64,000 bases of DNA from Arenicola marina (Eukaryota; Annelida; Polychaeta; Arenicolidae). How positions within the stretch are numbered: the stretch's first letter is position 1; every line of letters begins with the position of its first letter. Location: the NCBI GenBank assembly GCA_964019135.1, contig OZ025252.1:47032959-47096958 (forward strand), read 5' to 3'. The position numbers and the translations under genes were made by a program. Shown in pieces: positions 8,579 through 50,621 of this stretch. Under the pieces are notes generated by a model. That model ran no database searches. It worked only from the letters and a program-made list of their open reading frames with translations, and had not been told where the DNA came from.

Positions 8579-8654
8579 ATGGCGGCCATGTTGCCCCTGA
8601 TGGTACTGCTCCTGCTGCAAGCCGTTCCGAGTACCGCCACGACAGACATTTCTG
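8579..8654 (+). CDS. Receptor exon 1: start codon and signal peptide
   Basis: The chosen ATG (8579) has G at +4 and opens a short N-region, a run of Met/Leu/Val, then Ala-Val-Pro-Ser-Thr-Ala, a classic signal peptide. An upstream in-frame ATG at 8468 would bury the signal peptide about 37 residues in, so it is less likely. Donor gtaagt; intron phase 1. The exon probably extends upstream as 5'UTR. Confidence 0.75.
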
Positions 8655-11600
8655 GTAAGTATCCCGGACAAATATCCACATTACAAAGTAGCATATCCAT
8701 AACTGACATCGACTTTTGCATGAGATGACATAATTAATACTGATGCACATAAAAAGATAAGAAAGCGTTGTATATGTTTCCACACTGAACTTTCAATAAA
8801 AAGTTCTAGTTGTGGGATTATTGGCCGAGCTGGTCACTTAATTTCGCCTTTAATTGTTCCCGAAGATTCCATTCGCCTCGTGGACGGAGTTCCCGGTCGG
8901 AGCGGTCGTCTAGAGATCCTCTATGATGGCAAGTGGGGGACAGTCTGTGACGACGGATTCGACATCAATAATGCCACGTAAGCCACACAGTACATTAGCA
9001 CACCCACGGCTTCAACGTAAAGTGGTGCTGTAGCCTTGCTTCCATCCTTTTTAAATGCCTTTCACGACAGTTGAAGTATATTTTACAATATAATGTTCTG
9101 TTATCTGAATCAAGAGATGGTGAAACATTTCTCTGGGTGACAGCTTGTTATTAACAAACGTCTAGAGACAATTAAATATGGTAAATCTGCTTGTTGATAA
9201 TTGGTCTATTCCACGATGAGTTGCACTACGTTTCCTCGAGTAACCGCTTCGTGATCACAACTTTGAATCTCACTCCACCTCTAGTTATCGTTCGCACGAT
9301 TTATCCGGACACTTTTGAAAGTCCATACAACACACACCCATCGGAAGTTAAAATGGGGGACTCCCTGTTGTGGTGCTTAGCATGAAGCACAGCAGATGCA
9401 GCTCAACTTTGCTACTGGAGGGTCAGTGGAAGAGAGGAGGGGAATAAAAACTGTAACGTGGTAGTTCTCTCTTACTGGCCTGAAACATTACTATGACTAC
9501 TAATGTATCTTGCTTTGTATTTCGTAATTGATGGATGTTTGTCTTCTCTTAGGTAAAAGAAAGTACCGGGGGCTGCAGTGTGATATAAAAATAAAACTCC
9601 GTTGGTATAAATCTATTTGCCGTTAATCGTTCTATTTAAAAAGAAAGCATTATCGAAAAAATCGCACATCAACAGTATAAACTACAGATTTTCGCCCATC
9701 AGGCGGGTGTCGAAATGTTCCGAACACCTGACCTGAGTTAGCCAATCACACGCAAGGCGTTGGCGTCACTGACGACTACCTTCTGCGGAACCAAAACTTT
9801 GTTTACATGCGAGCCGAGCGTCTTTGGAGCAAGCTGTCGGCCTAACACCTCTCATGAATAGTGACAAGCGAATTTGACTCATAAAATTGAAACATCGATG
9901 CATTTAGAATAAAATGGTGTACTGTTCAGCTGTTGGCTGTAACAATTCAAGTGCAAAAAAAGGACGGCAAGAACAGGATATCTTTTTACCGCTGTTCGCT
10001 AGGCGACCAGCAGCTTTTGCGGCAATGGCTACGCAAGATTGCTCGTGTGAGTTTTAAACCCACCAAATGTTCAAGGGTATGCTCCAACCACTATGAGAAT
10101 AAATGCTTCGAGTCGACAAGCTGCTAGCTTCACGTACCACTCCACCCCCTACCCTTTCCCACCACCCCCAAAGGCCGCCACCCCACCGATCCTAGCCCAT
10201 ACGGCCGTTCTATAGTACGGCAGTCCTGTCCATACACTCTTCAGTGACGGTGAGTTTCTAAGACAGCAGCTGTATCAAGTTACACCATCAACTGCCGCTC
10301 CCGTGGGGGGAGTGGGGGCACTACATATAGTTAGGTATATACAAGATTCAAGATTTTTTTTCAAGATTCAATCTCATTTATTCCGTCAAAGCAAACATTT
10401 CATTTGGTACATTATAGAAAAAAAAGAAAAAAAAAAGAATGCTCGACGCAGGAGACTCTGATTAAGGTAAGAACCGCTAGCATCAGAGCCACCTATATTT
10501 GTGGTAAACAGAATATTATATGATGGTAAGTAATGGAAACCGAACAGAACAGAACAGACACAGAACTAAACGTTTCCAACAACAAACAATATGTGTCATA
10601 AATATGGGATAAATGAAATATAGATTAAAACGCAATTGAATGTAAGCGCTTCAATCCAGTTATTTTAATTTAATTTGATTTAGTTTAATTTAAGTTAATT
10701 TAATTTAAGGGCCAACCATGGGAGAGGCACTACTTTACCTTTGAGATGAATAGCAATTTTGTACAGTGCAATGCTCGGAATAATTACTTATGGTATCATC
10801 TTTTAAATACTTGGAAAATCCTATCAGGCTGTGTGTATTGATTTTATCTAAGATACTTGCGGGCTCTGTGTTCACAGTTTCAATTAGGGAGTGTTTAATG
10901 CATTTTGTGGCATAGTCGTGGTGTGCTCTATTGGTACGGACCAGTGCCTTATGTCTGGTGTTGTATGCGTGTATCTCGTATGCATGTGTTATGGAAATCT
11001 GCGAAAAATACGTGGGAAGATTATTATTCTTTAATTTGTGATAGAACTTTAGTATTTGCAAACGGTGAATGTCATCTAACTTTAGTAGGTTTAGCTGTTT
11101 GAAAAGGGGTTCACTGTGATCCTTGAATCTACTTAGACTTATTATTCTCACTGCTCTTTTTTGCAATTGATAGATTCGCTCCCCACAGTATCCCCAAGCC
11201 AGTATACCATAGTTTATATGCGGAAGAATTAGAGTATTATATATCGTTAAGAGGGCATGTTTTGGCAGAGAATACTTCAGTCTATTCATGATTCCCAGAG
11301 TCTTGGAAATTTTAGTGGAGATTCTACCAATGTGACTTTGCCATTTCATATGCTTAGTAATTTGTAGACCCAACATGCTAAATTCATCCACGCATTCAAC
11401 TTGGACATTATTAATAAAAAGATTTGGCAATGGAAATTTCTTATCAGGTAAGTGAAAGACCATAAATTTGCTCTTACTAGGGTTTAACGACAGTTTATTG
11501 GCATTTAACCAGTGGCTTATCTTATTAAGTTCCTTATGACGTACTGAAGGATGTGGATTGGTCTGTTCTTACTGGGCTCAAAGTGCCTAACAATATGTAC

Positions 11601-14600
11601 AATGTAGTACATATGTGCCGCTCAAATGACGCCGCCCAAATGACCCCTTTTTGTCACCTTTTTTCTCTCAATCTCCAAAGCAGAAATCAATAATTTCTCT
11701 CCATACGCCCATCTTTTTTTTTCAAACTTGCAGTTCTTGACTATATAGTCTAATTGATATCGAAAGTGTTCAAATAAGTGTTCAAATACTCTCGCTCTCC
11801 AAATCCTCTATGCGGCATGGGAGCACACCCCCACCACCGTAGTAATGTAGTAATTTAATCTACCACCCAACTTGCCATAGGCACTCGCCTCAGCGCACTG
11901 ATTATGACGTCACCGGCGATGAAGCGACTAGTAGGTTTAGACGATTACTACTGCCGGCAGCTGTAATTTTGAAGCGGTGTAATTACCGAATTACATCGCG
12001 TTAGAGTGTTTACGCGCATGGAACTTCCGGATGTTTACAATATGGCGGAGCAAGAACAAATTTTTCCAACTGATGATGTAACCGGGTACCAGTTTGAACC
12101 CGTAAGGGACGAAGATGGCGGATTAGACATTGTTTATACAGGTCGTTGAAGCATCGCGTTGTCAGTGAAGCCGTGTGGCATTAGAAGGGTGGGGGGGGGG
12201 GGGTGGTGCGGTTCGGTTCGGAAAGCGGCAGTCGATGGTGTAACTTGATACAACTGCTCTCTTAGAAACTTGCTCTCACTGAAGGGTGTATGGACAGGAC
12301 GGCCATATTACCAGAAAGGCCGTATGGGTGGGTGGGGTGGCGGTCTATAGGTGGTGGGGAGGTGTGGAGGGAGGAGAGGTGCGTGTGATTGGCTAACTCT
12401 GGTCATGTGTTCACAACATGTCGACACCCGGCTGACGGGTAAAAATCAGTATTTTGTGCTGTTGATGATAAATGCAATTTGATTTTATAACAACTTGAGT
12501 GTAATTTTTATATCACATTGCAGCTGCCCGGCATTTTCTTTTAAAGGCAGTGTCCCCCACCATTTCCGCCTCGTTCCCACAACTTATTCTCATCTACCGC
12601 TTTGTTATTCAACGGTTTAGTTTAAGCTGTTAACGTTCACGTTTAGTGGGTACTACTTAAAACTGTTTAAGGGTCATTGTGGACTGTCAATACCCATCGG
12701 TCTCTGGTGTGTAAATTATTTTATCTCTGGCGCCTTAATTGCAGTCTGATATGCCATCTCCTTGGCTACCCGGACGGCGGGATACCGTACTGCTGTGCCA
12801 CCTTCGGCCCTGGCACCGGCCCTATCATCTCCAACCAAATAGACTGTCCCCCGGGCACCACGGACTACAATGAGTGTTCCATAAATGAAGTGGAACGCAA
12901 TAACTGCAGCCACAGTAATGATGTAGGCGTCAGCTGTGGGCCGCGAATCGATCCAGGTATGGATGGGCAGGCTATTCGACTCCAAAGAGTACGCCCCTCT
13001 CGATTCTGGCTTTTAATTTTGGCCTATTGAATTGGGGGGCGAGGATCACGGCCTTGATTCCATAAATTTAAAGCAAATATCAGAGAGGGAGCTACATTCG
13101 GAGATGATGAATGCGTTATTCACCTGGGCCCGTATTTTGGCCAAAACTTTAATTCTAACTGTTATCTATGTTTGCAAACGCGTATTCTGCATACATCTGA
13201 AGCTACGATCTCACTTGACAGCCACTAGAAACCTTTTAGGAGACTTAAGTTTTGATGTTTGACAAGATGGACCTCGTTCAGTCATGTTCGCGTCGCAGGC
13301 GCAAGCGTGATGCCAGATTTAACGTTAAACGTACCAGTCAGATTGAACTCGCGTGAACCCGCTTGAATTAAGGGGCAAAATAGAAACATCCGTGAGAAAT
13401 AGATTTAGATTGCGTCCCATTAGCAGGGGCGGAACTAGGAATTTGGAAATGGTGAGGGGAGGGCTTGGGCGCTCCAGCTCCGCTCTCTATAAAATTGCGA
13501 CTGTGGGGGAGGGGGGGAGTACGCTTCAGATGGCTTTGATGTTGTGGGGGAATGCGCCCTTTTTCCTGAAAAAGGGTCATTAAGACATTTCGTCTTGATC
13601 ATCCATTTGCCTGGTGGTGGGTTAAATCTCCCACAACCCCCCCCCCCCCACCCGCTGGATTCATTGGGTTAGAGCTACAACAAGCCACTTTGCGATGTAC
13701 TTTGTCGTGAAGCCCGACGTTTACAGTGAATCCTGATTTCCATGGGGGGGGGGCGTTGCAAACCCTCCTAATCCTCGGCCCCCGCCCGCCGCTAGACCCG
13801 CCCCTGATTCGGCCTATGCTCAAGCTTATTCCAGGTTTTGATCGTACCGTTTGCAGGCAAAAGGCGCAGAGTCGGTGGGGCTCTACCCACGGACGGATCC
13901 AGTTCGGTTGAGTGGTCCCGGGGGTCCCGGGGTCTTCTGTTTTTGCGGAAGAATTCCATTTTTCAATTTCAAATTTTCATCGTGGACCCCCCACCCCCAT
14001 CCCACCCTCTCATCGTCAACTAATTTGAATTGGTTGAGCCCCACCCGTCCCAATTTTGTCCCCCCCCCCCTTCCCCTGTGTCATCAATCGCAAGTTTGCT
14101 GTGGACCTCTCCGTTTAAAAATTCCTGGATCCACGCTTGCTGCCCGCTACCTGGCGACGTTAAGCTTTTTCTGTGTGTCTACTTCTGTCACCAGAGGATG
14201 ACACTCAACATCCTGACAATCTGCTGGTTGCGACAGGATTTGTCTGCTAAAGTACATTATTACCTTCATCATTAAAGAGTTCCAAAATGATGCGTCATTA
14301 TCCGGTAGCCGTCAGATGGCAGCACAACTCAAGGTCTAATTTGGTCGCCACGCTTGGCAAAGCGATGCGCTTCCGAGATTGAGTTGCGGAGAGAGTAAAA
14401 ACTCAGATGAGATGGATCTTAAGTTGTTTATAGAATCTGATACAGTTTTAAATCTTAGCTTACCCAGAAAATTAAGATAAAGTGTAAAATGGAACATAAC
14501 TTTAAGAAGTTTACAGAATACGGGTCTTGGAAATAACTTTTGACTTAGTCAAGTGTCCTGCGTAATCACAGATTATAGTAAATGTCCATAGCTGCCTGCT

Positions 14601-17600
14601 CCCATCGCCACGTACGCTAGGGGCACGGCGTCATCCCTCGCCACTGTAAAGTGACCAACCTGGCCTAACTATTGTGGCGATATAAAGGTCATGTATGTAT
14701 GTAGTCCCATATGTTGCTCTGCACAACAGTCTCATGCCCTTATGTAGAAAATGAGGGTGTAAGATTTATTTTTGTGGGCGACTAAGTGTTGTTAACGGCA
14801 CGATCCATCCAACCCTTTTCATTTTGTACTCTGATACCTAAACTTCATATTTACCACAAAACCCGCATGCATATGAACTAACAAAGTATCGCATTACTAT
14901 CAAGTCGATTGTAACTAGACTTCCTTTTTGTTTATTGCGCCATTTCGTCTTTGGTCATTCTCCACCAGCGGCTTTCGCCAGGTGGCGTTTCGCTTATTGC
15001 GTGTCATTGGCTGGGTGTATGAAGCGCCACCAAGCGAATGGTGTGGTTTTAACGACATGCACGCATGCACAGTTTCTCCAGTGGGTGGGCAAGGCGGCGG
15101 ACAGAACTGAGTTGTCTGCTGCTTCGAAAAGTCAACAGACGACATCGTCGTAATCACGGAGACCAACTAAAATAACAAGATACGTTCTAAGATACCTACT
15201 TTTAGAAACTATTGCCATACCCCAAAACGTTCTCGCCATCAGCGCCGCTTCTCGCCACGCGTGTTTGTAAAATGCAGGATTTGATGGACCGGTTTCCCAA
15301 CAACGTCACATGGGGCTAGTATGGATATACCTTCTTTTCAGAACCCATTCGCCTGGTCGACGGCGTTTACGGTCGGAGCGGTCGTCTCGAGATCTTCCAT
15401 AACAACCAGTGGGGCACAGTCTGTGACGACAACTTTGGCACAACCGAGGCCAGGTAATCTTTTTCACAGTAATTAGGCTAAACAATATTTTTTCCGAACG
15501 GATATAAAATTGGGTATTATTTATAAAAGACCAATAGGCCAACATCTAACGTCTACCACACATATTTGTATCGATAGGTACGTAAACGAGTCGCATTGGT
15601 TAAAGGGAATAGACGATTTCCATGGCGCGTATGACATCTAACTGTGAAAATTCAAGTTAAGGTGTTGGGTCGCTTGGTTGGGACCCAAACCGGGATGAGT
15701 GACTTAACATTGTGAATAACCAGTTGGGATGTATTTGGTCCGTGCAGAAAATATATAAAAAGAAAAGCTAATGTAAATGGACCTCGTACTTGCTCAGTCT
15801 GTCTATGAATAACTCACTGATTTCTACATCAACAACCGTTAGTGGATTTTTGTAATATGTAAGAAATATTCCATCACGCAATATTTATATATCTATCTTG
15901 GTGACAAGTCTAGCACTTCCCATGCAGTTAAATGTCGTTTATATTAGAATCTTGCAACGTTCCTCGACGTGGTTTTCAGCGCTGTGTGTCGACAGTTGGG
16001 CTACCCAGAGGGCGGTGTGGCAGCGTGTTGCGCAACTTTCGGCGAAGGCAATGGCACTATCTGGGCGGCCGACATAGACTGTTCTCCCGGAGCGTCCAGC
16101 CTGAGCCAGTGCGTATTCCCAGGTTGGGGCACTCACAGCTGTTTACACAAGGAAGACGTCGGTGTCAGCTGCGGACAGGACTCTACAGAAGGTAATGGAA
16201 TTTGAATATCCCGCCAAGCCCTGTAACATGGCCCGCCGTCTTGTGGGATGATGAATTCGCGAGTAATGGAACGGTGTATTAAACTCCGTTGGTGGGGGGG
16301 GGGGGCGATATCCAGCCATCTGGCAGCAGACATCCTCAAACACACATATAATAAATCAGCTCATTTACACAAATCGCTCAAGTTAAACTCATCATGACAA
16401 AAATCCCAGAGAGAATAACTCACTAAAATACTACATATAAGCTTACCTCTTTCACTCATGATAATAACACTATATATCTTCTTTTTTATTCTTGTGATAC
16501 AGGTTCAGTTCGCCTGGCAGACGGTGAGCCTGGTCGGAGCGGGCGTCTCGAGATCTACCATGACGACCATTGGGGCACTGTCTGTGATGATGGCTTCGGA
16601 TTAAGTGAAGCCAAGTAATTACATGAACGAATACATATCTAACTCTAAATCTAACTAAAATATCTAACTTCTGTTGTTACAATACAAAGCGACCAATGGT
16701 TTGGAGATATCAGTGATCTGTTATTAACATATTGCATTATTATTATTTTTACATGTTCCATGTGTTAGTTATTTGAATATCCCACCACACATGTCATTCA
16801 TTTACACAGACTGGACTTGTCAACCGTGATAACAGTTTAGCGCCCTGACACTATATCTGTTTCATTCTCAAATGAACGTCTTTATTTTGTGGCATTGTTT
16901 CATGATATTGAGTGTTTTTTTTTCAGTGTTACATGTCTTCAGCTTGGCTTCCAAGAAGGTCGCCACGTAAGCTGCTGTGCCCTATTTGGCCAGGGTTCCG
17001 ACCCCATCTGGTTGAATAACGTGGACTGTCCTCCGGAAGCCACGGACCTCAATCAGTGTTCTCACTCTGGGTGGGGCAAACACACCTGTAGTCACTACAA
17101 TGACGTGGGTGTCACCTGTGGCCCGCTCATCCCGGACGGTAGGCGTTGCACGTATAGTACTAATCTCCACGTATTTCCCCAATCGTATGTATGTGATACT
17201 TTTGCTAGCTGGTTAGCAGCTGGGACAAGGTAACAATTATAGTATCACGATATCATGATACCACAAATGAATTTGATGTATGTATGTACGTATGCCATTC
17301 AAACCCCTGCACTTGTGTTGTATTAACTGTTGGTACATTATATTTGACATTTCCAATAAGGAATGCTCCGACTTGTTGATGGCGTTTCGAGCCACAGCGG
17401 CCGCGTGGAGATATTCCATGACAACAAATGGGGAACCATCTGCGACTTCAACTCCAACTCGGATACAGCCAAGTATGTTTCGTGTTTAACTGCAACGAAA
17501 AACTACACGAATAAAACATTTAAATAATTAAACATTTAAATATTAAACAATCTGCTTGGCCTTAAGCGAAAGAGTCGCTGGATTTTAGTTTTGTAGATAT

Positions 17601-29600: not shown

Positions 29601-32600
29601 CGGAAGCCTCCCTGTCAATGTCACGTAACGTGTGTGACTCATGTCAAGTGAATTTGGAATCACTTAAAATCTCACTTCTTGTATCCAGGTCCGTGTCCAG
29701 CCGGGACGTCCGTCACGGGAGACACGTGCTTCCCTTGCCCACACGGACAATACCAACAGTATCGAGAGAAGCTTCAATGTGACTCTTGTCCCAAAGGCTA
29801 CAACACGTCAGACACCGGCTCCACGTCATCCAGCCAGTGCAGGAGTGAGAATACTGTAACCTGTGTCTTACCGTAAATAGCAGTATGGAAGCCGTGGCGT
29901 ATTCGGGATGGGGGGAGCAGATTATCTCATTCACTCCCCGCCCCACAAGATGAAATAATGTCACCCCCCTTCACGACGATCCGTTACCTGCCTGCCCCTC
30001 CTTCCCCATGCTGCCTCCGATTGTCAGTTTATTTCAACCTACACCCCCCCCCCCCCCTGCCCTAAGCCGCGGGATCCGCGTATGACAAGTATGTCTTGGT
30101 AAATAGAACGTCTAATGATACAGACAGATTATACAGCGGAAATATCAGCATATTCAGGAATGTCCTTCCTATATGATTAATACCTGAATATGATTGATCT
30201 ACACATCGTCAATTGTATCCAAACATCATTGTTTGGCAGCTCTCTGTGACTTGGCCTTCGGTGAGTGTGAGAACGGAGGGCGGTGTGTGGACGATGGAGG
30301 ACGACCCTCGTGTGACTGCGGAGAGACCGGATTCACTGGAAAGACGTGCGTCACAGGTAGGCAGATCTACTCCATAAACACTTTCCACGGGTTGCTTTAC
30401 CGTATGCAGTGGCGACACGCAGCCATTGGTAGCGATAGTTGTCATATCACCGGGGACGCGACAGCTTGAGGCATATATGACCCTTCGCCTCGACAATACA
30501 TTCAGTATGAACAATGTATTCCCATGTCGTGGGTGGAATCGACACAGTCAAGTCATTCTTACAATAGTACGGTAAATCACGTAACCTATCACCATTTACA
30601 TCCAATCTGGCATATCCAGGGCGGCTTACTCAGAATCTCTATGCCGGATTTGACAACGGGTTGCGGCCCTGACCCACAAACGGGATATCGTCTGTAATGC
30701 GCATGCGTTGTGGAAATGCTCTCTTCTATCCCTAAAAGATGCTATGATTGTCTTTTAATTGGGTACACGATGGTGTATCTTCCACGGGTGTTTTTTTCCT
30801 CTTAATTAAATGATCTCTTTAAACTAGAACAGAGGAACACACATGCCTTCATTTCTGTCCGAAACCTTAGCGATATTCTTCCCTTATGATTTTAGAAGTA
30901 GATTTCGCTTTTCATTTCCCCGTATTTATTTTGCGTTATGTAACATTGAATATGATCACGGATCACATGGTTATGTTTGCATTTTTATTAGCAGCATATA
31001 ATACTGACATATGTCCCATTTATTGCCAAGAGGAAAGTGTACACTGATGAACTTTGTTCTTCAGATATCGACGAGTGTTTACCCAAGCCTTGTCAACATG
31101 GCGGACAGTGCACCAACACCCCTGGCGGGTATGAGTGCCAATGTCTAAAGGAAGCAGGCAACACCTATGCTGGTGCTACCTGCTCTAACGGTAAGACTGT
31201 TATTGTGTTAGAAAGCATAATATCGAAAGGTATAGTTTTGGGGGTGTATTTTTTCACTCATTAATTATTTAAATATTCCATCAACACCATAAGTATTAAC
31301 AAATGTACCCTTTTGTGCGGTAAATAGGCCACTAATAACGCATGCTTCTGTGATTGAGCATGAGGCACTCATGGCCCTTCGCTTCGAATACATGTGATGT
31401 GTGTTTCCATGCCTTTAATGTGTTTAATAAATGAGTCTACACATTCAAGTCATTCCTACAATGGTACGTTAAGCATGAAGCGAAATCCAGTAATATGACA
31501 TCATCGTAATCACGAAACCTTTACATCCAAACTGGCATATCCAGGCCGGCCTACTACGGAATCTCTATGCCGGATTTGACAACGGGTTGCGGCCCTGACC
31601 CACAAGCAGAATATCGTCTGTAATGCGCATGCATTGTGGAACTGCTTTCTCGTGTCCCTAATAGATATTATGATTGAAACTTAAACCGACGCTTCCCGCA
31701 TCCTGCAACAAAGCCAGGAAAAGACTTGGCGAAGAGGCTGGTGGGAGACCAAATTTGGGTAGCTGGAGTCAGTTTTCCGACAATCTCGCAAAAAATCTTG
31801 GTTGGTTGATGGAGGGTGGGAGAACCCAAACAATGGGTCTCCACGCCGAGGATAGCGTACATTTAACATTGAAAATGAGTATCCGCGCTTATCACCATTA
31901 CAGCGCAGAGGCCACGTAGAGGACCTGCATTATTGCATACCATTAATAAGAACCTTGTGGGTGAAGATTGCGCCGGCAACTTGCCAGAACGTGAATTATG
32001 TAATACAGACCTGAAGTTATGTACTACAAGTGTTTATATCTCTCGAAACACCACCACTACGAAAACCCCTATCACAGCGACTTGAATATGAAGTCAAAAC
32101 ACTGCCAATATAACAAAGCAAGCGAAAGCTCGCATAGAATCATGAGTGGCAAACATTTCCAAATCATATGGAAATACCAAATAACAAAAATACCATTTAG
32201 TGCAAATATCAAATAATAGAAACATAGCTTAGTGGAAATATTACTTATCATCTAACTTCTATAGACGTAACCTACCATTTGAGGAAAATGCCACCTAGTC
32301 AAGGTACATATTAATCGATATCCCACTTACTGAAAATATGCCTCATATATGGACATCTGTCGCCTCTGCGTTTCTATTCATAAATATATACAGTCAGACC
32401 CCGTTTATCCGACACCCGTTAATCTGGAAACCCCGCTATCCGACACAATGCGTCCTGTAACGGATTTTCACAATGCTAATTGCCCCCGTTAATCCGACAT
32501 TTGCTTTCCAACATGGACACGGCTTTTGTGCGACTAAAGTGCCAATTTCTCTCGTTTATCCGACCAATTGGCCATGAAGCCGGGCCCCGCCGTGTTAATT

Positions 32601-35600
32601 GGCTTTCGCTCCATTCTTTCGTTGTGATACGTGGCCGGTGGACTGTTAACAAACAACGGACACTGATGGTTATTGCTTTCAAGCGTCGACACCTGAAGGT
32701 GTCATTCTTTGTCCCAGCTGATTTTAAGTACTCATCCGGGTGGTTCAATCGCTTCAAGATACGCCTCGCCATCAATTCCCCAAGCACGGTGAAGCTAGAA
32801 GCTTCCAGGTTGTGTGTCAAACACCTGAACCATATGGCAGCTTTGCTCAAACTTACAGAACTATTCTTCCTATGCCCGTGTGCAATGTATTTTGTATAAT
32901 TTCTTAAAATTGGTTACCGTTGCCTCGAACGCACAATGGGTCATTGCACAATGGGTCATTGCCGAAGTGTCAAGTAAGTCCCCCCCCCCCCCCCCTCTGG
33001 GATTTCTGAATGCGTCAATTCGACATACTCGTCATACGACACAAATTCGGGTGTAACCGAATGTGTCGGATTAACGGGGTCTGACTGTATATGTGTTTCT
33101 CAATACTGTAGTGGTGAACAGGGAGCCGGAAGCATTAGATGTAACGCCCCTCTTCGGGCCGGTGGCGGGCGGAACAAATATTACCGTTCTTGGTAATAAC
33201 TTCGATGCTGGGTTTCAGCCTATGCGCTTGCGCCTGCAAGGCGACAAGTACGCGTGCCCAGTCTGGCAAAGGTGAGTTCCAGCACAAAGGTTTCCGGGCA
33301 AAGATGCATGTGTGTTATCATCTAAACGTGTCAGGTTTGATGGGAAGCCTCCGAAAGGTTAATTTATTAAAAAAGTGGATACGCAAGAAATGTCATTAAG
33401 CGTAGTAACTCTTCCATCGGGACTATCTGCAGTAGAATATATTTATTGTACTAGAAACATTGATCTGACACCAATATTGAGTCTTACATGCAGAATGGCA
33501 TCCCCGCCATCTTTCATAATTACCGATGCGCACAATTTTCCGCCAGCGCTAATATAAACAGACCTGCAATACATTGATACATATCTCTCCGTGATGTATG
33601 ACGTTGTTTTTGTGTCACACGAAGCAATGGGACGTATCTCGTGGCGACAACACCGCGCGGAGAGGACTTGGACGTTGGCGTGCCGCTATCCATTGAGGTT
33701 GTCTTCGAGGGGGGTCTGACAATCTCCACCCGGAAGTCATTCGAGTACCGCGCCAACCCGGAGATCACAGCGTTGTACCCAAACAACACCCTTCTCGAGT
33801 GAGTGGACCTGTCTTTATCCTGCTTCTGGCATTCGATGCCCGTTAGACACCAATGATTTATATGATTAAGATATAGTAGGTTTTAGGCTATGTATTAATA
33901 TAGTTTATAATATATGTAATATACTTAAATCTATATAAGAAAGTTAATGTGTATGAAATATCAAAACAGGCGCACCTAGTAGACAACAACGCCGTAATTA
34001 TCAGCGTTATTGAGGCACATGAAGTGCCATGCGGCTAGATGCCACCTTACGAATGATGGTGGATATAAGTGCAACAAGAAATCACTGACATCAATAATAT
34101 GTGATTGCCAAAATTGCATTTTAACGATAATAGCTTTAGCACAATCATATCAACTTCATTTAACTGCTTGACACAGGGGCGGTTCCACCTTAACGGTCGA
34201 TGGCCAGGGACTGATGTCTGTGGACACTCCATATCTAGAAATTACGATGGAAATAAATACAACTATTCATGAGACCTTCAACGTTATTGTTGAAACAATC
34301 AGGAAATACTTCAGGGAGGTGAGATCGAGTGCTGAGCCACCGAGATCATTCACCCACATTTCTACCGTTATCACCATGGTTACGGATGTAAGCGTGAATC
34401 ACATATAGTTCTGACAGTTTTTATTATAATTGCTATGACTGGTCTTGAATAGATATGCATGTGATTACTGCAAATCGTTTTAGATACATTATTGATAAAA
34501 AATCGTATTGTTATTAGTTTCAAATAATGTATGTGAATCATTTTTATTATTAGCTTATGACTACTATGAATAGTTATTATATTTAACCTTCTCCACAGAG
34601 ATGTTTTGTCCTAACCAACGAGAGGGCCGAGTGTCTCACTCCGACAGTTGTGATACCGGACAGCTTTAACGCATCAGACGAACAGTCAACGCTGGCTCTG
34701 TATGCTGGTTTCATACTTGACGGGTATGAGAAATACCGAAATCTGCAAAACACCTCCCTGGAGTCGAGCCGAACGTTGGGATATGTCCCGGTACACAACA
34801 TGACGCCGCGGACGGAAGTTTTTGTCTACAAAGGCCAGCCCCTGATTCTACGGGTAAGTGTCAGATTTATTGACTTGAGTATCGGACGCTTTAACCAGTA
34901 TAGGTCATATTGCGACAACGGGAAGGGTCAAGGAAGGGAGGAGCCATGTCACCATAGTAACCGACCTATTCTTTGAGAAGGAAGACATGGGACATTTATC
35001 TTGGGCAAACGGCAGCATCGGTACAGGTGGGAGTCTAACCGCTTGCACCTTGCCCATCACAGAACACACGACAATAGCCCCACGCGCTACTTACAAAGGC
35101 AAGGGGCGACCCCGAGTCTCCCTTTAGCCATTGGCGAGTAGTCGTTGCATCCTCCAATGCACAGTTTGCATCGCGCGTTTTTCCAGGTAACAAAATAATA
35201 TTCTCCGAACATTCTCCGAATATTCCACCAATGTTATTGACATATTACCAAAAAACATTCCGGGAATGTTTTTCAGGAAAGTTTTCTTAGTATTCAGGGA
35301 ATGCTTTTTGCGAATACTACAAGCGAATCTTTCCAGGACATTAAACGAACATGATGGTGTACTCACAGAAATGAAGCAGAAAACCGTGAAACATTTTTAA
35401 CGTCTTCATTATTAGACCGCGTGGTTGACATGTCAATGCGCCAATATCCTCCGGGAGCCAGCGCCGCACAAGTTTTGGATATGCCAAAAAAAATGTACTA
35501 ATGTGCATCACAACTGATGGGTGGATCCAAGAGGGGCAGGTCCGGAATCCCTGGACCCCCCCCCCCCCACCCCTCTCTCTCTCGCTCTCTTTTGAGGAAG

Positions 35601-37519
35601 AACACTATCTGAGGCGTGGACGCCCGCGGTCGCAATTTCTGGTGGACCCTCGTTCGCAATTTTGTTCAGAGACCCAGCCCGCCCCCCTCATGTCGCAAGT
35701 TTCAATGCATAATAACGTAACAACATTTACTTTGTGCAAGCGTACCATTCGCAAAACCTCCTCGTAATTCATTCGTAACGTAACACGGAAAGAAAAACTG
35801 AGCGAACATTACGGGAATGTGGGTCCGTAATATTCTGCGAATACTACGGGAATGTTCGCCCGTAATATTCTGCGAATATTACGGGCATGTTCGTCCGTAG
35901 CATAACACAGAAAGAACATTCTGCTAATATTACGGGAATGTTCGTCCGTAACATAACATGGAAATAACATTGAGCGAATAATACGCGAATGTTCCGTGTT
36001 TGCTGGGATATTTGCTCATTATTGATAAAATCTTCATGTACTTATGTAGTCTGCAAATATGTATGATAAATTAAAAATATATGCGTCTTAATAAGTTATC
36101 TCTAAGATGTACTAATGGTGTATGGGGATGTCACGTCATATAGATCAGTGCGTCACAGTTCCATGCGGCCGGGATTGCCATGCATATACCCAGCTTGCTA
36201 TATCTCATATCTCAAATGTCTCCGCGTACATACCATGCAGGGTGCTCGCATCGACCCGGACGCGGAATATTCAGTGCTGATTGGCCAAGGCGACTGTTTA
36301 ATCACAGAGAAGACTTCTACGTCAATCCACTGTGATGTGCCGCAGGAGGCACCCCAAAGACTCCCTTTCAGCATGAGCAAGCACCACACGATAACGGTAA
36401 GAGAATCAGAGTTATTAATGTTATCAGAGTTATTACGTGTTCCGGATCAGAAATAAGAGACACGTTTGTGTATACATACCAATGTAGAAACTATTGGATT
36501 TAACAGGCGGAGAAGATATCTGTTCACATAAATATAGACAAATAACCCTTTCTGTACGTGTTATGTCATAATGCCTCATGCTGAATTTCATAGTGTCAAT
36601 GTACGTGTTATTAATTTAATGGCCGGCCTAGCCGTCTAGTTGCCTAGCTGATTGATATATACTTATATGGTGTAAAGAAGGCGAGTGGATCACAAAGTGC
36701 GGGACGGCTTCTAAGCGCTAAACATTTTACTACTAACGTTTTTGCGAATTAAACCAAAGCAGCAAGGAGATGTTAACGCTCAGCACATATGTGAGGTAAA
36801 CTGGAACATAAATTTATCTCGTAATAATAGTAATAGCGCCAGTTTTGCAAGGCGTTAGACAGTTAATTGGCCCTTCGTCAAGCTGAAGCAGCCCTTCGTT
36901 TTCATTAATGAAAATTGACGGACTGCTACAGCTTGAATTCGGGCCAGTGAAGTTGCCTAACGCCCGGCTAACTCGCGTTATTGCTATATTATGCGATTTT
37001 TGTGATATTGCCGCGACATAATATTTTGCATTTTCCTCCTCGATATTGTCATTATATAATAATGTTATGATTGTTATTACGCATTGTCATATATGCATTT
37101 TTTTGACATGAATATTATGTCTGCAATATCACTAAGCAATGATTAATTAATTGCAGCTAAACATTTTACGGAGTGTCAACTACACGATGGGAGAGGTGCA
37201 GTACCCCCCTGAGGAAGGCCTACTGATCGGTCTCCTTGTGGCGGCGGCCGTCATCGTGACCCTCGCTATAGTTGTCACGGTGGTCATAGTCGCCACTAGG
37301 AAGAAAAAGGTAGCGCAGAGGAAAACCGCGAAACCTATGGAAGAATGGATCGTGTTGCCAGCGCTACCCTCAGGCATCGCAGACAGCGCCAGCAGAGATG
37401 ACCCTGTCCCGATGCAGATTGACTACATTAGCTTGCAGCGGGAACGTGCTGGAGGCTTACGGCTGCAGCGGCATCTCCAGGCAATGCAGCAGGACTGGTC
37501 GTGGAAAGCCACCTCGTGA
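8579..37519 (+). CDS. Multi-domain SRCR-mucin-EGF-IPT type I transmembrane receptor (25 coding exons)
   Basis: I assembled this gene from splice sites and reading frame. The 25 exons total 5877 nt, all junction phases agree, and the product is 1958 residues. Approximate layout: signal peptide 1-22; SRCR domains 1-7 at 26-133, 134-241, 242-349, 350-453, 454-561, 562-667 and 668-770; Thr-rich stalk 771-1370; EGF 1371-1409; GCC2/GCC3-like module 1410-1461; EGF 1462-1500; calcium-binding-type EGF 1501-1542; IPT/TIG region 1543-1838; transmembrane helix 1860-1884; basic stop-transfer; tail to 1958. SRCR, EGF and IPT are established extracellular interaction modules; IPT repeats next to the membrane are typical of plexins and MET, but no Sema, PSI, kinase or GAP domain is present. 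The likely role is a cell-surface recognition or adhesion receptor, and the tail motif I-x-Y-x-x-L suggests inhibitory-type signalling or endocytic sorting (inference). A database might label it DMBT1-like, but no CUB or ZP domain is present. Untranslated exons are unknown. Confidence 0.85.
8866..8977 (+). CDS. Receptor exon 2: SRCR1, first half
   Basis: 112 nt, phase 1 to phase 2. Encodes the SRCR start IRLVDG...GRLEI, then WGTVCDDGF with the first conserved Cys and the Asp pair that binds divalent metal in other SRCR domains. Acceptor ag at 8864-8865, donor gtaagc. Confidence 0.88.
9914..10114 (+). pseudogene. THAP zinc-finger domain, frameshifted
   Basis: ATG at 9914 opens [11 protein letters not shown] (THAP C-x4-C start). 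After a run of seven A the matching sequence continues one frame over: [17 protein letters not shown], then [20 protein letters not shown], giving the conserved Trp and the C-x2-H pair of THAP. One frameshift is needed, so as it stands the domain is broken. No transposase catalytic part follows. Confidence 0.65.
10345..11537 (-). mobile_element. CR1-like (Jockey superfamily) LINE fragment, RT C-terminus
   Basis: A minus-strand frame of 242 codons (10735-11463) encodes the thumb and C-terminal part of a LINE reverse transcriptase, with [14 protein letters not shown] and [13 protein letters not shown] landmarks. The 3' end, towards 10345, finishes in copies of an AATCTTG-type microsatellite. 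It is 5'-truncated inside RT. It differs clearly from the two CR1 copies further right, so it is a separate subfamily. It interrupts the P-like element. Confidence 0.8.
12042..12149 (+). CDS. Short ORF in the P-like element, YQFEP motif
   Basis: 36 codons beginning [20 protein letters not shown] and ending in TGA. The 'Y-x-F-E-P' start resembles small invertebrate proteins annotated as P2X7-tail-like, which are often multicopy; that link is from memory and weak. It may be the first exon of an element-borne or captured gene. Confidence 0.3.
   Translation: MAEQEQIFPTDDVTGYQFEPVRDEDGGLDIVYTGR
12745..12956 (+). CDS. Receptor exon 3: SRCR1, second half
   Basis: 212 nt, phase 2 to 1. Contains [12 protein letters not shown], the vicinal pair YCCATFG, a DC/EC/NC cysteine series and DVGVSC. 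The usual GWG turn before the NC cysteine is replaced by an Asn/Glu-rich stretch, so this repeat is diverged. It is separated from exon 2 by 3.8 kb of intron holding a transposon. Confidence 0.88.
12957..13420. other. Receptor intron, no further feature
   Basis: Intron sequence after SRCR1. No domain-bearing frame seen. Confidence 0.5.
13424..13806. mobile_element. MITE-like element with CAGGGGCGG termini
   Basis: Begins CAGGGGCGGAACTAG and ends with the inverse of CAGGGGCGGGTCTAG. The interior is rich in G and C runs with no coding frame. Terminal inverted repeats plus small size suggest a non-autonomous DNA element; a target duplication is not clear. Confidence 0.5.
13893..14140. repeat. 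Second GGATCC-bounded MITE-like repeat
   Basis: Starts near 'gacggatccag' and ends near 'cctggatcc', with C-rich interior tracts, similar in style to the element at 13424-13806 and to the sequence at about 35510-35700. Boundaries are approximate. Confidence 0.35.
14141..15330. other. Receptor intron, no further feature
   Basis: No supported exon or RNA. Short open frames near 14915-15166 have no recognisable domain. Confidence 0.45.
15342..15453 (+). CDS. Receptor exon 4: SRCR2, first half
   Basis: 112 nt, phase 1 to 2. Encodes [17 protein letters not shown] and [14 protein letters not shown]. Acceptor ttttcag, donor gtaatc. Confidence 0.9.
15980..16191 (+). CDS. Receptor exon 5: SRCR2, second half
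   Basis: 212 nt, phase 2 to 1. Encodes [12 protein letters not shown], a vicinal Cys pair in [25 protein letters not shown] and EDVGVSC. This is the most canonical of the seven copies. Confidence 0.92.
16503..16614 (+). CDS. Receptor exon 6: SRCR3, first half
   Basis: 112 nt, phase 1 to 2. Encodes [17 protein letters not shown] and [14 protein letters not shown]. Acceptor gatacag, donor gtaatt. Confidence 0.9.
16927..17138 (+). CDS. Receptor exon 7: SRCR3, second half
   Basis: 212 nt, phase 2 to 1. Encodes [10 protein letters not shown], the pair [24 protein letters not shown] and NDVGVTC. Acceptor follows a long T tract; donor gtaggc. Confidence 0.9.
17361..17472 (+). CDS. Receptor exon 8: SRCR4, first half
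   Basis: 112 nt, phase 1 to 2. Encodes [19 protein letters not shown] and [14 protein letters not shown]. The second acidic residue after the first Cys is replaced by Phe, so metal binding at this copy is doubtful. Donor gtatgt. Confidence 0.88.
17740..17939 (+). CDS. Receptor exon 9: SRCR4, second half (shortened)
   Basis: 200 nt instead of 212, phase 2 to 1. Encodes [12 protein letters not shown], then [12 protein letters not shown] where other copies have CCATFG, so the vicinal Cys pair is missing. The H-x-EDVGV segment is reduced to GDNVLGVLC. It keeps the six-cysteine group A pattern. Confidence 0.88.
18148..18259 (+). CDS. Receptor exon 10: SRCR5, first half
   Basis: 112 nt, phase 1 to 2. 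Encodes [19 protein letters not shown] and [14 protein letters not shown]. Acceptor gtgttag, donor gtaagt. The next intron is 5.9 kb and carries the nested foldback structure. Confidence 0.9.
18505..18710. mobile_element. Hairpin MITE in receptor intron
   Basis: Begins CTTGCACATgaagctccattg and ends with its inverse (caatggaggttcattATGTGCAAG). The arms also share 'ctaaaagaag' near the middle. The 206-bp near-palindrome could fold end to end. No coding capacity. Confidence 0.65.
19131..19405. repeat. Left-arm tandem repeat of the foldback
   Basis: About four diverged units, each with a phrase close to aaataggtaacactcgcgcg and then ataccgttttacc. It lies between the outer inverted repeat and the TACCATGGTA block. 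Confidence 0.55.
19415..20150. repeat. TACCATGGTA palindromic satellite, first array
   Basis: Long run of variants of the 10-bp palindrome TACCATGGTA with spacers such as aatcatgata and cagcatgataaa. Each unit is self-complementary. The array starts at an edge gcccttatgaaaatataccatgg that reappears inverted at about 22487-22510. Confidence 0.9.
20151..20880. other. Non-repetitive sequence inside the palindromic block
   Basis: No gene. Contains a small hairpin around 20582-20612 (ccaccacaccacatgaagat, then ggtgtgg). Confidence 0.45.
20885..21080. repeat. TACCATGGTA satellite, degenerate second patch
   Basis: Diverged units such as ataccatggtaatatcatga and ccatggtatatc, apparently an older or decayed piece of the same array. 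Confidence 0.65.
21260..21576. mobile_element. MITE-like inverted-repeat element
   Basis: The left end has gggttttggggg and CCGCCAAAAT; the right end has ATTTTGGCGG and finally cgcaaaccc in inverse order. 'ccgctcgg' also recurs inverted. About 317 bp, no coding frame. Confidence 0.5.
21931..22095. repeat. 90-bp tandem duplication with C runs
   Basis: Two near-identical copies beginning 'atctgttgatctgctgggtg', starting at about 21932 and 22022, each followed by a run of C. A simple tandem duplication. Confidence 0.85.
22190..22510. repeat. TACCATGGTA satellite, third array
   Basis: Palindromic units alternate with 'ccatcgccaaaacacc' or its inverse. The array ends with atattttcataagggc, the inverse of the left boundary of the first array. 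Confidence 0.88.
22505..23560. repeat. GGCTATGGCTC minisatellite in inverted halves
   Basis: The forward half (22505-22760) has units gggctatggctctcggtgcc. The inverted half (22990-23560) has gccatagcccggcaccgaga-type units. Between them the 22780-22985 spacer is itself roughly palindromic (gatcgcgagggtgaaa against accctcgcgatctc-like phrases). The frames that run through are repeat artefacts. Confidence 0.85.
23729..24166. other. Receptor intron, no further feature
   Basis: Nothing recognisable between the foldback end and exon 11. Confidence 0.5.
24167..24378 (+). CDS. Receptor exon 11: SRCR5, second half
   Basis: 212 nt, phase 2 to 1. Encodes [12 protein letters not shown], the pair [25 protein letters not shown] and EDVGLVC. 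Acceptor cggcag, donor gtaagc. Confidence 0.9.
24712..24823 (+). CDS. Receptor exon 12: SRCR6, first half
   Basis: 112 nt, phase 1 to 2. Encodes [17 protein letters not shown] and [14 protein letters not shown]. The Asp pair after the Cys is Gly-Asn here, an apparent loss of the metal site. Confidence 0.88.
25277..25482 (+). CDS. Receptor exon 13: SRCR6, second half
   Basis: 206 nt, phase 2 to 1. Encodes [21 protein letters not shown] (no vicinal Cys pair), [17 protein letters not shown] and DDVGVTC. Acceptor ttgcag, donor gtaaat. Confidence 0.9.
25667..25778 (+). CDS. Receptor exon 14: SRCR7, first half
   Basis: 112 nt, phase 1 to 2. Encodes [19 protein letters not shown] and [14 protein letters not shown]. 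Acceptor gccaag, donor gtgagc. Confidence 0.9.
26394..28390 (+). CDS. Receptor exon 15: SRCR7 second half plus Thr-rich mucin-like stalk
   Basis: 1997 nt, phase 2 to 1. About the first 200 nt encode [21 protein letters not shown] (no vicinal Cys pair), [17 protein letters not shown] and EDVGVSC. The remaining approximately 1.8 kb is a coding minisatellite of 15 bp (Thr-Thr-Thr-Met-Asp and variants such as TAMD, ITPMV, DPPTMV). It gives roughly 600 residues dominated by Thr, without Cys: a likely O-glycosylated, extended stalk. The frame stays open across the array and the splice phase fits the next exon, which argues for real coding sequence. Unit number is likely variable between alleles. 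Confidence 0.88.
26630..28385 (+). repeat. 15-bp in-frame minisatellite with higher-order duplications
   Basis: The unit is close to accacaacgatggac. A marker variant encoding V/M-D-P-P-T-M-V recurs at 27181, 27436 and 27871; the spacings are 255 and 435 bp, that is 17 and 29 units, which shows segmental duplication inside the array in multiples of the unit. The opposite strand is also open as a Val/Ile/Ser-rich frame simply because the period is a multiple of three. Confidence 0.9.
28391..29197. other. Receptor intron, no supported exon
   Basis: A short candidate at 28900-28934 (after gcag, encoding [10 protein letters not shown]) would break the reading phase and was not included. Confidence 0.5.
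29198..29314 (+). CDS. Receptor exon 16: EGF-like domain 1
   Basis: 117 nt, phase 1 to 1. Six cysteines in EGF order: [11 protein letters not shown], then YTCSCYHGY and ATC. Acceptor attgcag, donor gtaact. It joins the stalk exon directly in frame. Confidence 0.85.
29689..29844 (+). CDS. Receptor exon 17: GCC2/GCC3 (ephrin-receptor-like) Cys-rich module
   Basis: 156 nt, phase 1 to 1. [20 protein letters not shown] followed by [17 protein letters not shown] and a final SQC match the GCC2/GCC3 pattern, which is often found beside EGF domains, for example in SCUBE proteins. The exact donor (gtgaga) was chosen to keep phase 1. Confidence 0.82.
30240..30356 (+). CDS. Receptor exon 18: EGF-like domain 2
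   Basis: 117 nt, phase 1 to 1. [14 protein letters not shown], then [15 protein letters not shown]: six cysteines with the G-F/Y-x-G-x-x-C ending of classic EGF domains. Acceptor ttggcag, donor gtaggc. Confidence 0.9.
30464..30760 (+). repeat. Dispersed repeat, copy 1
   Basis: Shares a long colinear match with 31355-31680: tcaagtcattcYtacaat, tggcatatccagg, then 'ctatgccggatttgacaacg' and 'ctgtaatgcgcatgc'. The copies occupy neighbouring introns either side of exon 19. No coding frame. Confidence 0.75.
31065..31190 (+). CDS. Receptor exon 19: calcium-binding-type EGF domain
   Basis: 126 nt, phase 1 to 1. Starts [16 protein letters not shown], the D-x-D/N-E-C calcium-binding start, followed by YECQC and ATC. 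Acceptor cttcag, donor gtaaga. Confidence 0.9.
31355..31680 (+). repeat. Dispersed repeat, copy 2
   Basis: Second copy of the repeat at 30464-30760, in the following intron and the same orientation, with moderate divergence and an insertion near the middle. Confidence 0.75.
31681..32385. other. Receptor intron, no further feature
   Basis: No exon or RNA recognised. Confidence 0.45.
32391..33087 (+). mobile_element. Non-autonomous pogo/Tigger-type (Tc1/mariner superfamily) element
   Basis: Flanked by TA on both sides. The left end CAGTCAGACCCCGTTTATCC and the right end, inverted, CAGTCAGACCCCGTTAATCC are near-perfect terminal inverted repeats that continue into CGACAC. At about 32700-32790 one frame keeps a CENP-B-type helix-turn-helix piece ([20 protein letters not shown]). 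The DDE catalytic part is missing, so this is an internally deleted copy about 700 bp long. Confidence 0.82.
33112..33271 (+). CDS. Receptor exon 20: IPT/TIG fold 1, first part
   Basis: 160 nt, phase 1 to 2. [20 protein letters not shown] is the IPT/TIG signature (P-x-x-G-P-x-x-G-G-T). The acceptor lies about 25 bp past the right end of a pogo/Tigger-type element, so that insertion just missed the splice site. Confidence 0.85.
33625..33798 (+). CDS. Receptor exon 21: IPT fold 1 end and IPT fold 2 start
   Basis: 174 nt, phase 2 to 2. [14 protein letters not shown] closes the first IPT fold (strand ending in T-P-x-G), followed by [20 protein letters not shown], which opens the next fold (Y-x-x-P-x-I). 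Acceptor cacgaag, donor gtgagt. Confidence 0.82.
33799..34176. other. Receptor intron, no further feature
   Basis: AT-rich intron without recognisable elements. Confidence 0.5.
34177..34318 (+). CDS. Receptor exon 22: IPT fold 2, middle
   Basis: 142 nt, phase 2 to 0. [20 protein letters not shown] matches the plexin/MET second IPT (G-G-x-x-L-T-V-x-G-x-x-L). The rest ([19 protein letters not shown]) is less typical. Donor gtgaga. Confidence 0.78.
34599..34853 (+). CDS. Receptor exon 23: IPT fold 2 end and linker
   Basis: 255 nt, phase 0 to 0. Two Cys in [18 protein letters not shown] resemble the plexin IPT core, followed by a 60-residue segment ending [13 protein letters not shown], which resembles the start of the last plexin-type IPT. 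Acceptor ctccacag, donor gtaagt. Confidence 0.8.
35180..36005. repeat. Repeats with AACATTCC / GGAATGTT palindromic core
   Basis: Two patches (35200-35350 and 35785-36005) contain repeated phrases such as tacgggaatgttcgtccgta and gtaatattctgcgaatatta, spaced roughly every 40-55 bp and self-complementary. The right end gttccgtgtttgctggga resembles 2800-2820. Between them, 35510-35700 is a C-run-rich MITE-like stretch beginning gtggatccaagaggggcag. Confidence 0.6.
36241..36396 (+). CDS. Receptor exon 24: plexin-type IPT fold 3
   Basis: 156 nt, phase 0 to 0. [20 protein letters not shown], then IHCDVP, matches the membrane-proximal plexin pattern Y-x-V-x-I-G-x-x-x-C-x-I ... C-x-x-P. Acceptor catgcag, donor gtaaga. 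Confidence 0.8.
36831..36982. mobile_element. Near-perfect hairpin (about 150 bp)
   Basis: Arms: 'aaggcgttagacagttaatt' on the left against the inverse 'cagtgaagttgcctaacgcc' on the right, with agctgaagcag/ctgctacagct closer in and a centre ttttcattaatgaaaa. Probably a foldback MITE. Confidence 0.7.
37157..37519 (+). CDS. Receptor exon 25: transmembrane helix, cytoplasmic tail, stop
   Basis: 363 nt including TGA, phase 0. [13 protein letters not shown] leads into a 25-residue hydrophobic helix ([19 protein letters not shown] and on), then [10 protein letters not shown] as stop-transfer. The tail has WIVLPA and IDYISLQRE. The motif I-D-Y-I-S-L (37418-37435, Tyr 1928) fits both the ITIM consensus and a Y-x-x-hydrophobic sorting signal. 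The same landmarks recur in the paralogous exon at 50.2-50.6 kb, which supports this as the real terminal exon. Confidence 0.9.
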   Translation, partial: LNILRSVNYTMGEVQYPPEEGLLIGLLVAAAVIVTLAIVVTVVIVATRKKKVAQRKTAKPMEEWIVLPALPSGIADSASRDDPVPMQIDYISLQRERAGGLRLQRHLQAMQQDWSWKATS

Positions 37520-42208: not shown

Positions 42209-42525
42209 ATGTTTGTCAAGGACGATACCACACATGTCAAAACTGTCAACGCACTCTATTTGCGTATTGTTTATAAACAAAGATGGAACATTAACAGATT
42301 TCTGTTGTGTATGAAAGATCATGAAATTGGATTTTGCCGCGTTCAGGGCAAGTTTGTTTGCATAAAGCCACTCACTAATTTTAACCAGTTCGCAATTAAT
42401 TACAAGGCTGGACTCATTAGGGACAGGAGTCATAGTACTTAACAGCGTGGTATCATCTGCATATATAATAAATTTGAAAATATCGCTAGCTGAGGATATA
42501 TCATTTATATAGATAATAAAAAGTA
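42209..42525. repeat. Approximately 317-bp direct duplication, right copy
   Basis: Partner of 38541-38863. Its sequence continues without a break into the rest of CR1 copy B, as expected for a target duplication or a local rearrangement at insertion. Confidence 0.9.
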
Positions 42526-50209: not shown

Positions 50210-50621
50210 TTAGTTCGTATTCATTTCATTGCGGTTGGAGCTGTAAAGTAGCCGATTGCCCTGCAGTCCCTGACCACTTCGCCGCTTCCAGCCTCGGTGC
50301 TCTCTCTGTAAGCGAATGTAGTCGACTTGTTCCGCTCCCGCGTATCAACGTCCTTCTCAGAGTGCATGCTTCCATCCAAGCTGTGATCAGAAGGCGGGGC
50401 CGGCAGTACGACCCAGTCATCCGTGTTGGAGGGAGACTGTGTCCCAACACGCCCAGCCGGTCCTTGTTCCTCTTCCTCCTGTTCCCGACCACCACCACGG
50501 CCGCGATGATGGCGATGACCAAGATGGCGGCCGCTGCCACAGGCACACCGATCACCAAGCCAAGCTTGCTAGGATATTCCAAGTATCCCATGGTGTAGTT
50601 AACCGGCTGCGCAATGCGCAG
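50210..50621 (-). pseudogene. Paralogue of the receptor terminal exon (TM and tail), frameshifted
   Basis: After a ttattgtag acceptor the minus strand encodes VNYTMGYLEYPSKLGLVIG, then a hydrophobic helix and NRRKRNKDR. This matches exon 25 of the receptor ([10 protein letters not shown], helix, RKKKVAQRK). The tail landmarks are present but in other frames: DWVVLPAP at 50394-50418 and VDYIRLQRE near 50300-50326. Two frameshifts relative to exon 25 are therefore needed. No upstream IPT or EGF exon of this paralogue is visible on the minus strand to the right, so it is a detached, probably dead exon. Confidence 0.75.

What the first reader, a model, noticed from the sequence alone, without database searches (positions are those of the whole stretch)
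8579..37519. Receptor with an apparently new domain order: 7 SRCR, mucin stalk, EGF/GCC2-GCC3, plexin-like IPT, TM, short tail
The sequence directly shows 25 exons whose phases agree throughout and sum to a whole number of codons, ending in a transmembrane helix. SRCR proteins are known with CUB/ZP, collagen or protease partners; membrane-proximal IPT sets are known in plexins and MET family receptors. I know of no described family that joins SRCR repeats, a Thr stalk, EGF modules and an IPT set without Sema/PSI. A role in recognition or innate immunity is inference.
Basis: partly seen in the sequence, partly recalled or inferred. Interest (0 to 1): 0.88.

Follow-up and report, generated by a model that had tools for sequence, protein, structure and literature searches.

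The report
Scavenger receptor with plexin-like membrane stalk
An animal gene appears to encode a cell-surface receptor that joins seven scavenger-receptor domains, a mucin-like stalk and EGF modules to the membrane-proximal end of a plexin-type receptor, a combination not found in the searches made here; no transcript was available to prove that it is one gene.

Summary
The rebuilt chain has 25 exons (8579-37519, + strand), all introns GT-AG, phases agreeing, 1958 residues plus stop: signal peptide, 7 SRCR, Thr-rich stalk, EGF, GCC2/GCC3, two EGF, three IPT, TM, short tail. The IPT part aligns collinearly with the last three plexin IPT domains and, in two plexins, on through the TM helix. Pfam found no Sema, PSI, Ras-GAP or kinase in the two parts scanned. 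The stalk varies mostly synonymously in the frame that continues SRCR7. A frame-broken copy of the last exon at 50621-50261 (minus) keeps the tail motifs with dN/dS about 0.2, so a relative existed. Of 188 proteins returned by three searches, none has both SRCR and TIG, but one list showed only 120 of 3391 hits. Weak link: no transcript crosses stalk to EGF, and a poor rival first exon exists at 28846. I read one receptor gene: a new domain order within a superfamily known for shuffling. Ligand binding and tail function are inferred.

The parts
8579..8654 (+). Exon 1: start codon and signal peptide
8866..8977 (+). Exon 2: SRCR1 first half
12745..12956 (+). Exon 3: SRCR1 second half
15342..15453 (+). 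Exon 4: SRCR2 first half
15980..16191 (+). Exon 5: SRCR2 second half
16503..16614 (+). Exon 6: SRCR3 first half
16927..17138 (+). Exon 7: SRCR3 second half
17361..17472 (+). Exon 8: SRCR4 first half (metal-site aspartate pair is DF)
17740..17939 (+). Exon 9: SRCR4 second half
18148..18259 (+). Exon 10: SRCR5 first half
24167..24378 (+). Exon 11: SRCR5 second half
24712..24823 (+). Exon 12: SRCR6 first half (metal-site aspartate pair is GN)
25277..25482 (+). Exon 13: SRCR6 second half
25667..25778 (+). Exon 14: SRCR7 first half
26394..28390 (+). Exon 15: SRCR7 second half and the Thr-rich stalk (597 aa, 296 Thr; tandem array 26631-28380 of 15-nt units)
29198..29314 (+). Exon 16: EGF-like module 1
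   Evidence: (FXa_inhibition, cEGF)
29689..29844 (+). Exon 17: GCC2/GCC3 (Ephrin_rec_like) module
   Evidence: PF07699, 1.8e-7
30240..30356 (+). Exon 18: EGF module 2
31065..31190 (+). Exon 19: EGF module 3 (EGF_CA-like)
33112..33271 (+). Exon 20: start of first IPT (aligns with plexin IPT4 by my numbering)
33625..33798 (+). Exon 21: rest of first IPT, start of second
34177..34318 (+). Exon 22: second IPT
34599..34853 (+). Exon 23: end of second IPT, start of third
36241..36396 (+). Exon 24: third IPT
37157..37519 (+). Exon 25: juxtamembrane strand, TM helix and 74-residue tail with IDYISL, stop codon
37834..37839 (+). Candidate polyadenylation signal AATAAA
   Evidence: sequence
50261..50621 (-). 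Frame-broken second copy of exon 25: juxtamembrane strand with TM, and two tail motifs, in three different frames

Best explanation
One gene encodes a large type I membrane receptor. Seven SRCR domains at the tip bind polyanionic or microbial ligands through bridging metal ions; most binding is expected in SRCR2, 5 and 7, which keep the aspartate pair and the glutamate. The Thr stalk, probably O-glycosylated, and the EGF/GCC modules hold this head away from the cell. The membrane-proximal piece is a captured plexin ectodomain end (IPT4-6, juxtamembrane strand, TM) that links head to membrane without Sema ring or Ras-GAP. The short tail carries one tyrosine motif, IDYISL, which fits both a YxxPhi endocytic signal and an ITIM, so the likely output is ligand-driven uptake and/or inhibitory phosphatase recruitment. 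Shown: an open, phase-consistent exon chain, domain identities, plexin homology through TM, constraint on the tail exon and, moderately, on the stalk frame. Inferred: single transcript, ligand class, glycosylation, tail function.
For: Exon chain with consistent phases; donors at or above the 90th percentile of 3571 GTs. Pfam domains. Plexin-A1 is the best PDB match of the IPT part, E 5.5e-12; two plexins, P0060 (unnamed source) and P0063 (Condylostylus plexin-A4), align with query residues 5-361 and 7-361 of 416, through the TM. Stalk: 81 of 163 single codon changes synonymous in frame (0.50, sites 0.22), against 0.17 and 0.22 in the other two frames (sites 0.24 and 0.16). No in-phase TM exon (19-residue mean above 1.6) directly after the stalk and no ATG exon with a GTRAG donor that could start exons 16-25. 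Metal-site aspartate pair kept in 5 of 7 SRCR; in DMBT1 SRCR8, D1019A and D1020A abolish binding (PMC7043408, passages). Second copy of exon 25: dN 0.36, dS 1.81 over 81 codons, tail motifs kept.
Against: No transcript. The stalk-to-EGF donor is CCG|GTCAGT (97th percentile, but C at +3), and an AATAAA at 28641 could end a shorter mRNA. A weak ATG exon at 28846 could start exons 16-25. The stalk units are not independent: two third positions carry most of the synonymous changes, so the frame test is weaker than its counts. An ITIM-like motif arises in 4.1% of shuffled tails, and 10 of 45 SRCR proteins with a C-terminal TM have one under a looser pattern, so the motif alone proves little.
Confidence: 0.72

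Rival explanations
1. Two neighbouring genes: a secreted SRCR-mucin protein (exons 1-15) ending shortly after the stalk, and a separate EGF/IPT/TM receptor (exons 16-25) with its own first exon.
For: AATAAA at 28641, about 250 bases after the stalk. An ATG exon at 28846 or 28867 with a moderately hydrophobic start could join exon 16 in phase through a donor at 28991 (94th percentile) or 28976 (59th).
Against: Its hydrophobic stretch is weaker than exon 1's (2.34 against 2.92) and is followed by four arginines; no candidate with a GTRAG donor exists there. Exons 16-25 otherwise have no start, and exon 15 has an in-phase donor at the 97th percentile.
Confidence: 0.15
2. One gene with two products: a soluble SRCR-mucin form (intron retention or polyadenylation after the stalk) and the full membrane receptor.
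For: Read-through after 28390 meets a stop after six codons, and an AATAAA follows at 28641. Another GT at 28407 would shift the frame and stop within exon 16 (frames; donor at 86th percentile).
Against: Only sequence signals; such hexamers are common in AT-rich introns (not measured here).
Confidence: 0.35
3. The plexin-like end is only structural: the protein is an anchored mucin-like adhesin or scavenger, and the tail does nothing.
For: The 74-residue tail has no Pfam match. ITIM-like motifs occur in 10 of 45 TM-bearing SRCR proteins, so one is not remarkable.
Against: The motifs [11 protein letters not shown] and [10 protein letters not shown] have counterparts (7 of 11 and 8 of 10 residues identical) in a second copy whose overall dN/dS is about 0.2.
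Confidence: 0.3
4. The locus is a pseudogene or assembly chimera.
For: Transposon ORFs lie on both sides, and the second copy of exon 25 is broken.
Against: No stop or frameshift in 25 exons; in the five SRCR exon pairs computed, dN is 0.16-0.46 against dS 1.2-1.8, though dS is near saturation.
Confidence: 0.06

Closest known systems
DMBT1/SALSA-like multi-SRCR proteins
   Same: Tandem SRCR domains; many of the 120 listed hits of the SRCR part bear this name, at 32-45% identity; metal-site aspartate pair kept in 5 of 7 domains here.
   Different: No CUB or ZP in the parts scanned; adds stalk, EGF/GCC and plexin-like IPT end.
CD163 (M130), CD5L and CD6
   Same: CD163 gives the best PDB matches of SRCR7 (E about 1e-159, summed over its repeats); CD5L and CD6 are also matched. 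CD163 is a type I receptor with many SRCR and a short tail (recalled).
   Different: No EGF, GCC or IPT in those proteins (recalled).
Plexins
   Same: Last three IPT, juxtamembrane strand and TM align collinearly.
   Different: No Sema, PSI or Ras-GAP in the parts scanned.
MET and Met-LP receptor tyrosine kinases
   Same: Reuse of a plexin ectodomain on another receptor (PMC6374515, passages); MET matched.
   Different: Those keep Sema and PSI and carry a kinase (same passages); none was found here.

Membership tests
SRCR superfamily | At least one SRCR domain | tested here: met
   Seven stretches of PF00530, E 2.4e-174
Group A SRCR (definition recalled: six Cys, two exons per domain) | Each domain encoded by two exons | tested here: met
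   7 of 7 split as 112 nt plus 200-212 nt, the last second half fused to the stalk
Group A SRCR (definition recalled: six Cys, two exons per domain) | Six cysteines | tested here: inconclusive
   Six in SRCR4, 6, 7; eight in SRCR1, 2, 3, 5, which carry an extra CC pair
DMBT1 | CUB and ZP domains after the SRCR set (recalled) | tested here: not met
   Neither among Pfam matches of the two parts scanned (780 and 588 aa; the stalk was left out)
Plexin | Last three IPT, juxtamembrane strand and TM | tested here: met
   Collinear alignment
Plexin | N-terminal Sema and PSI domains | tested here: not met
   No match in the two parts scanned; introns were not scanned with a Sema model
Plexin | Cytoplasmic Ras-GAP | tested here: not met
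   74-residue tail without Pfam match, then a stop
MET / Met-LP | Cytoplasmic tyrosine kinase | tested here: not met
   No kinase match
ITIM receptors | Tyrosine motif phosphorylated and bound by SH2 phosphatases | not testable with these tools
   Only the motif IDYISL was seen, and VDYIRL in the broken second copy

The most novel reading that the evidence does not exclude
A third class of receptor built on the plexin ectodomain, beside plexins and MET/Met-LP: the membrane-proximal half was cut away from Sema and joined to a scavenger-receptor head and a tyrosine-motif tail, founding a small gene family (at least two members at this locus once) that turns pattern recognition into uptake or inhibition.
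Probability: 0.35. Interest if true: 0.68.

Novelty: new variant of a known kind. Interest (0 to 1): 0.52.

Why it matters
Plexin ectodomains are described on plexins and on MET-type kinases (PMC6374515, passages); that survey collected Sema-containing proteins, so Sema-less forms would have escaped it. A Sema-free plexin end under a scavenger-receptor head would show that the last IPT domains and TM are a portable membrane connector, and would give a case to test how innate receptors are assembled by exon shuffling.

Tried and rejected
Own-genome search did not complete, so relatives in the same genome could not be counted. The organism was not identified: the SRCR hits come from many phyla at similar identity, best single-domain identity 57% within the 188 proteins held. 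One search was dominated by EGF proteins and said little about the IPT part; one search asked for the IPT-TM region alone, in the length window of the full protein (0.55-1.75 times 1958 aa), so shorter IPT-TM relatives were not searched for on their own. A hit of the exon-25 model in a Patiria SRCR protein (P0107, E 3.3e-5 in a 188-protein set) lay in hydrophobic TM stretches only. No Rfam or tRNA match. Further SRCR, EGF, IPT or TM exons on both strands were sought; only the exon-25 copy and one EGF-like piece came up. The models contained the chain's own exons, so their matches to the chain are by construction. Papers: PMC10855680, PMC6374515, PMC7043408 and PMC2575513 were seen as passages. 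Of 15 papers listed (23 found), 10 held both 'SRCR' and 'TIG'; 8 of these were opened for passages: in 7 the word is a journal DOI, in PMC7663992 it is in a legend on thrombospondin-repeat proteins. PMC6716108 (IPTG only) and PMC12849515 were also checked. The other papers were seen as listings; the searches found none.

Full report
OBSERVATION. Splice sites read from the sequence by eye give 25 exons from 8579 to 37519 on the + strand. All 24 introns are GT-AG, phases agree, the coding length is 5877 nt, and the only stop is the last codon. The donors lie at the 90th to 100th percentile of 3571 GT dinucleotides on that strand, by a table of recalled frequencies; the weakest is exon 17 (90th) and the stalk exon's is at the 97th. 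Pfam finds SRCR (7 stretches), TIG (3), EGF (2) and Ephrin_rec_like, i.e. GCC2/GCC3. The scan covered 780 aa before and 588 aa after the stalk; most of the 597-residue stalk (296 Thr) was not sent. The most hydrophobic window is the TM (residues 1865-1883), the next well-separated one the signal peptide. An AATAAA lies at 37834.

IS THE STALK TRANSLATED? The array shows 0% indels against its 30-, 45- or 75-nt period and long ORFs run through it in all + frames, so openness proves little. In the frame that continues SRCR7, 81 of 163 single codon changes from the consensus unit are synonymous (0.50; 0.22 of sites). In the other frames it is 28 of 167 (0.17; sites 0.24) and 36 of 162 (0.22; sites 0.16). 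The 116 units are not independent and two third positions carry most of the excess, so this is moderate support.

ONE GENE OR TWO? After the stalk there is no in-phase TM exon before exon 16 (19-residue mean above 1.6). With GTRAG donors there is no ATG exon of 45 bases or more able to start exons 16-25. With any GT donor, one stretch appears: ATG at 28846 or 28867, donors at 28976 or 28991 (59th and 94th percentile), hydrophobicity 2.34 against 2.92 for exon 1. An AATAAA at 28641 precedes it. A two-gene reading is possible but weaker; a soluble form beside the full receptor is also possible.

THE PLEXIN PART. The best PDB match of residues 1543-1958 is plexin-A1 (E 5.5e-12), followed by MET and plexin-A4 and -A2. 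The long alignment covers the last three IPT domains of the ectodomain, which I number IPT4-6 by the order PSI-IPT x3 then IPT x3 (PMC6374515, passages); a short second alignment puts the start of the query on the preceding IPT. Against two plexins of the protein database the alignment runs from query residue 5 or 7 to 361 of 416, so it includes the juxtamembrane strand and TM. The region search gave 9 hits at E up to 0.01: six with plexin domains, one MET-like kinase and two others (P0062, P0067), none with SRCR. The parts scanned have no Sema, PSI, Ras-GAP or kinase. Introns were not scanned with a Sema model.

THE SRCR PART. Each domain is split into a 112-nt exon and a 200-212-nt exon; SRCR7's second half is fused to the stalk. 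Four domains (1, 2, 3, 5) have an added CC pair, three have six cysteines. The motif GR[LV]E[IV]xxxxxW is in 7 of 7. The aspartate pair that I place on D1019/D1020 of DMBT1 SRCR8 is kept in SRCR1, 2, 3, 5, 7 and lost in 4 and 6; the position of E1086 is E in 2, 5, 7, N in 1, 3 and 4, D in 6 (placement by motif and alignment of the seven domains, SRCR4 being uncertain). In DMBT1, D1019A and D1020A abolish binding to all three ligands tested (PMC7043408, passages).

THE TAIL AND THE SECOND COPY. On the minus strand at 50621-50261 lies a second copy of exon 25, beginning after a TAG. Its juxtamembrane/TM part, the DDWVVLPAPPS piece and the QVDYIRLQRE piece are in three different frames. Over 81 codons, each piece in its own frame, dN is 0.36 and dS 1.81, so both copies were constrained for long before the frame broke (inference). 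No other exon of that gene was found in the window except perhaps an EGF-like piece on the opposite strand. The tail motif IDYISL fits ITIM and YxxPhi patterns (recalled). Controls: 4.1% of shuffled tails contain an ITIM pattern, and among 120 SRCR proteins 45 have a C-terminal TM and 10 of those an ITIM-like motif by a looser pattern. The motif is a lead and not a result.

NOVELTY. Searches returned 59, 9 and 120 proteins. By the precomputed Pfam lists, read by eye, none of these 188 has both PF00530 and PF01833, and my IPT model (built from this protein and two plexins) hit 10 of 188, none of them among the 120 SRCR proteins. Limits: one search listed 120 of 3391 hits and scored 7940 candidates; one search scored 7988; candidate lengths were 0.55 to 1.75 times the query. 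Paper searches for SRCR with 'IPT domain', SRCR with 'TIG domain' and 'scavenger receptor cysteine-rich' with plexin and 'domain shuffling' found 0 papers in the held library. A looser search (SRCR, TIG, EGF, lancelet; any three) found 23 papers and listed 15; 8 of the 10 listed ones with both SRCR and TIG were opened at those words and none joins the two domains there. In PMC10855680, which surveys SRCR proteins in 29 species, the main text has no 'TIG' or 'IPT' (supplements not seen). [quoted passage not shown] its table of combinations not seen). So the exact order may sit in an unseen supplement.

VERDICT. An open gene model with a domain order not found here, most simply a receptor made by exon shuffling. 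New variant of a known kind.

Noticed in passing
50261-50621 (minus): Frame-broken second copy of the TM and tail exon, with the tail motifs kept; other exons of that gene were not found in the window.
   Followed up: yes
51213-51296 (+): EGF-like fragment (E 4.5e-4 to a home-made EGF model) close to the second copy but on the other strand; no Pfam match for its ORF.
   Followed up: partly
49390-50157: Tandem array of a 51-base unit, 15 copies at 90% match, close to the second copy.
   Followed up: no
39811-41271 (+), 42185-43051 (-), 62369-62977 (-): Reverse transcriptase ORFs (the first two, PF00078) and a weak endonuclease match below Pfam's cut-off (the third); probably LINEs.
   Followed up: partly
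5056-5361 (-): Retropepsin-like ORF (PF13650), probably part of an LTR retrotransposon; a nearby ORF at 4398-4700 has no Pfam match.
   Followed up: partly
53511-54257 (-): C2H2 zinc-finger ORF of 249 aa.
   Followed up: partly
exons 3, 5, 7, 11 (12745-24378): Vicinal CC pair added to SRCR1, 2, 3 and 5; similar CC pairs occur many times in one Holothuria and one Diadema SRCR protein (P0102, P0145) and once in two Lytechinus proteins, out of 188 scanned.
   Followed up: partly
19428-20139: Long degenerate array of a near-palindromic TATACCATGG unit inside intron 10.
   Followed up: no
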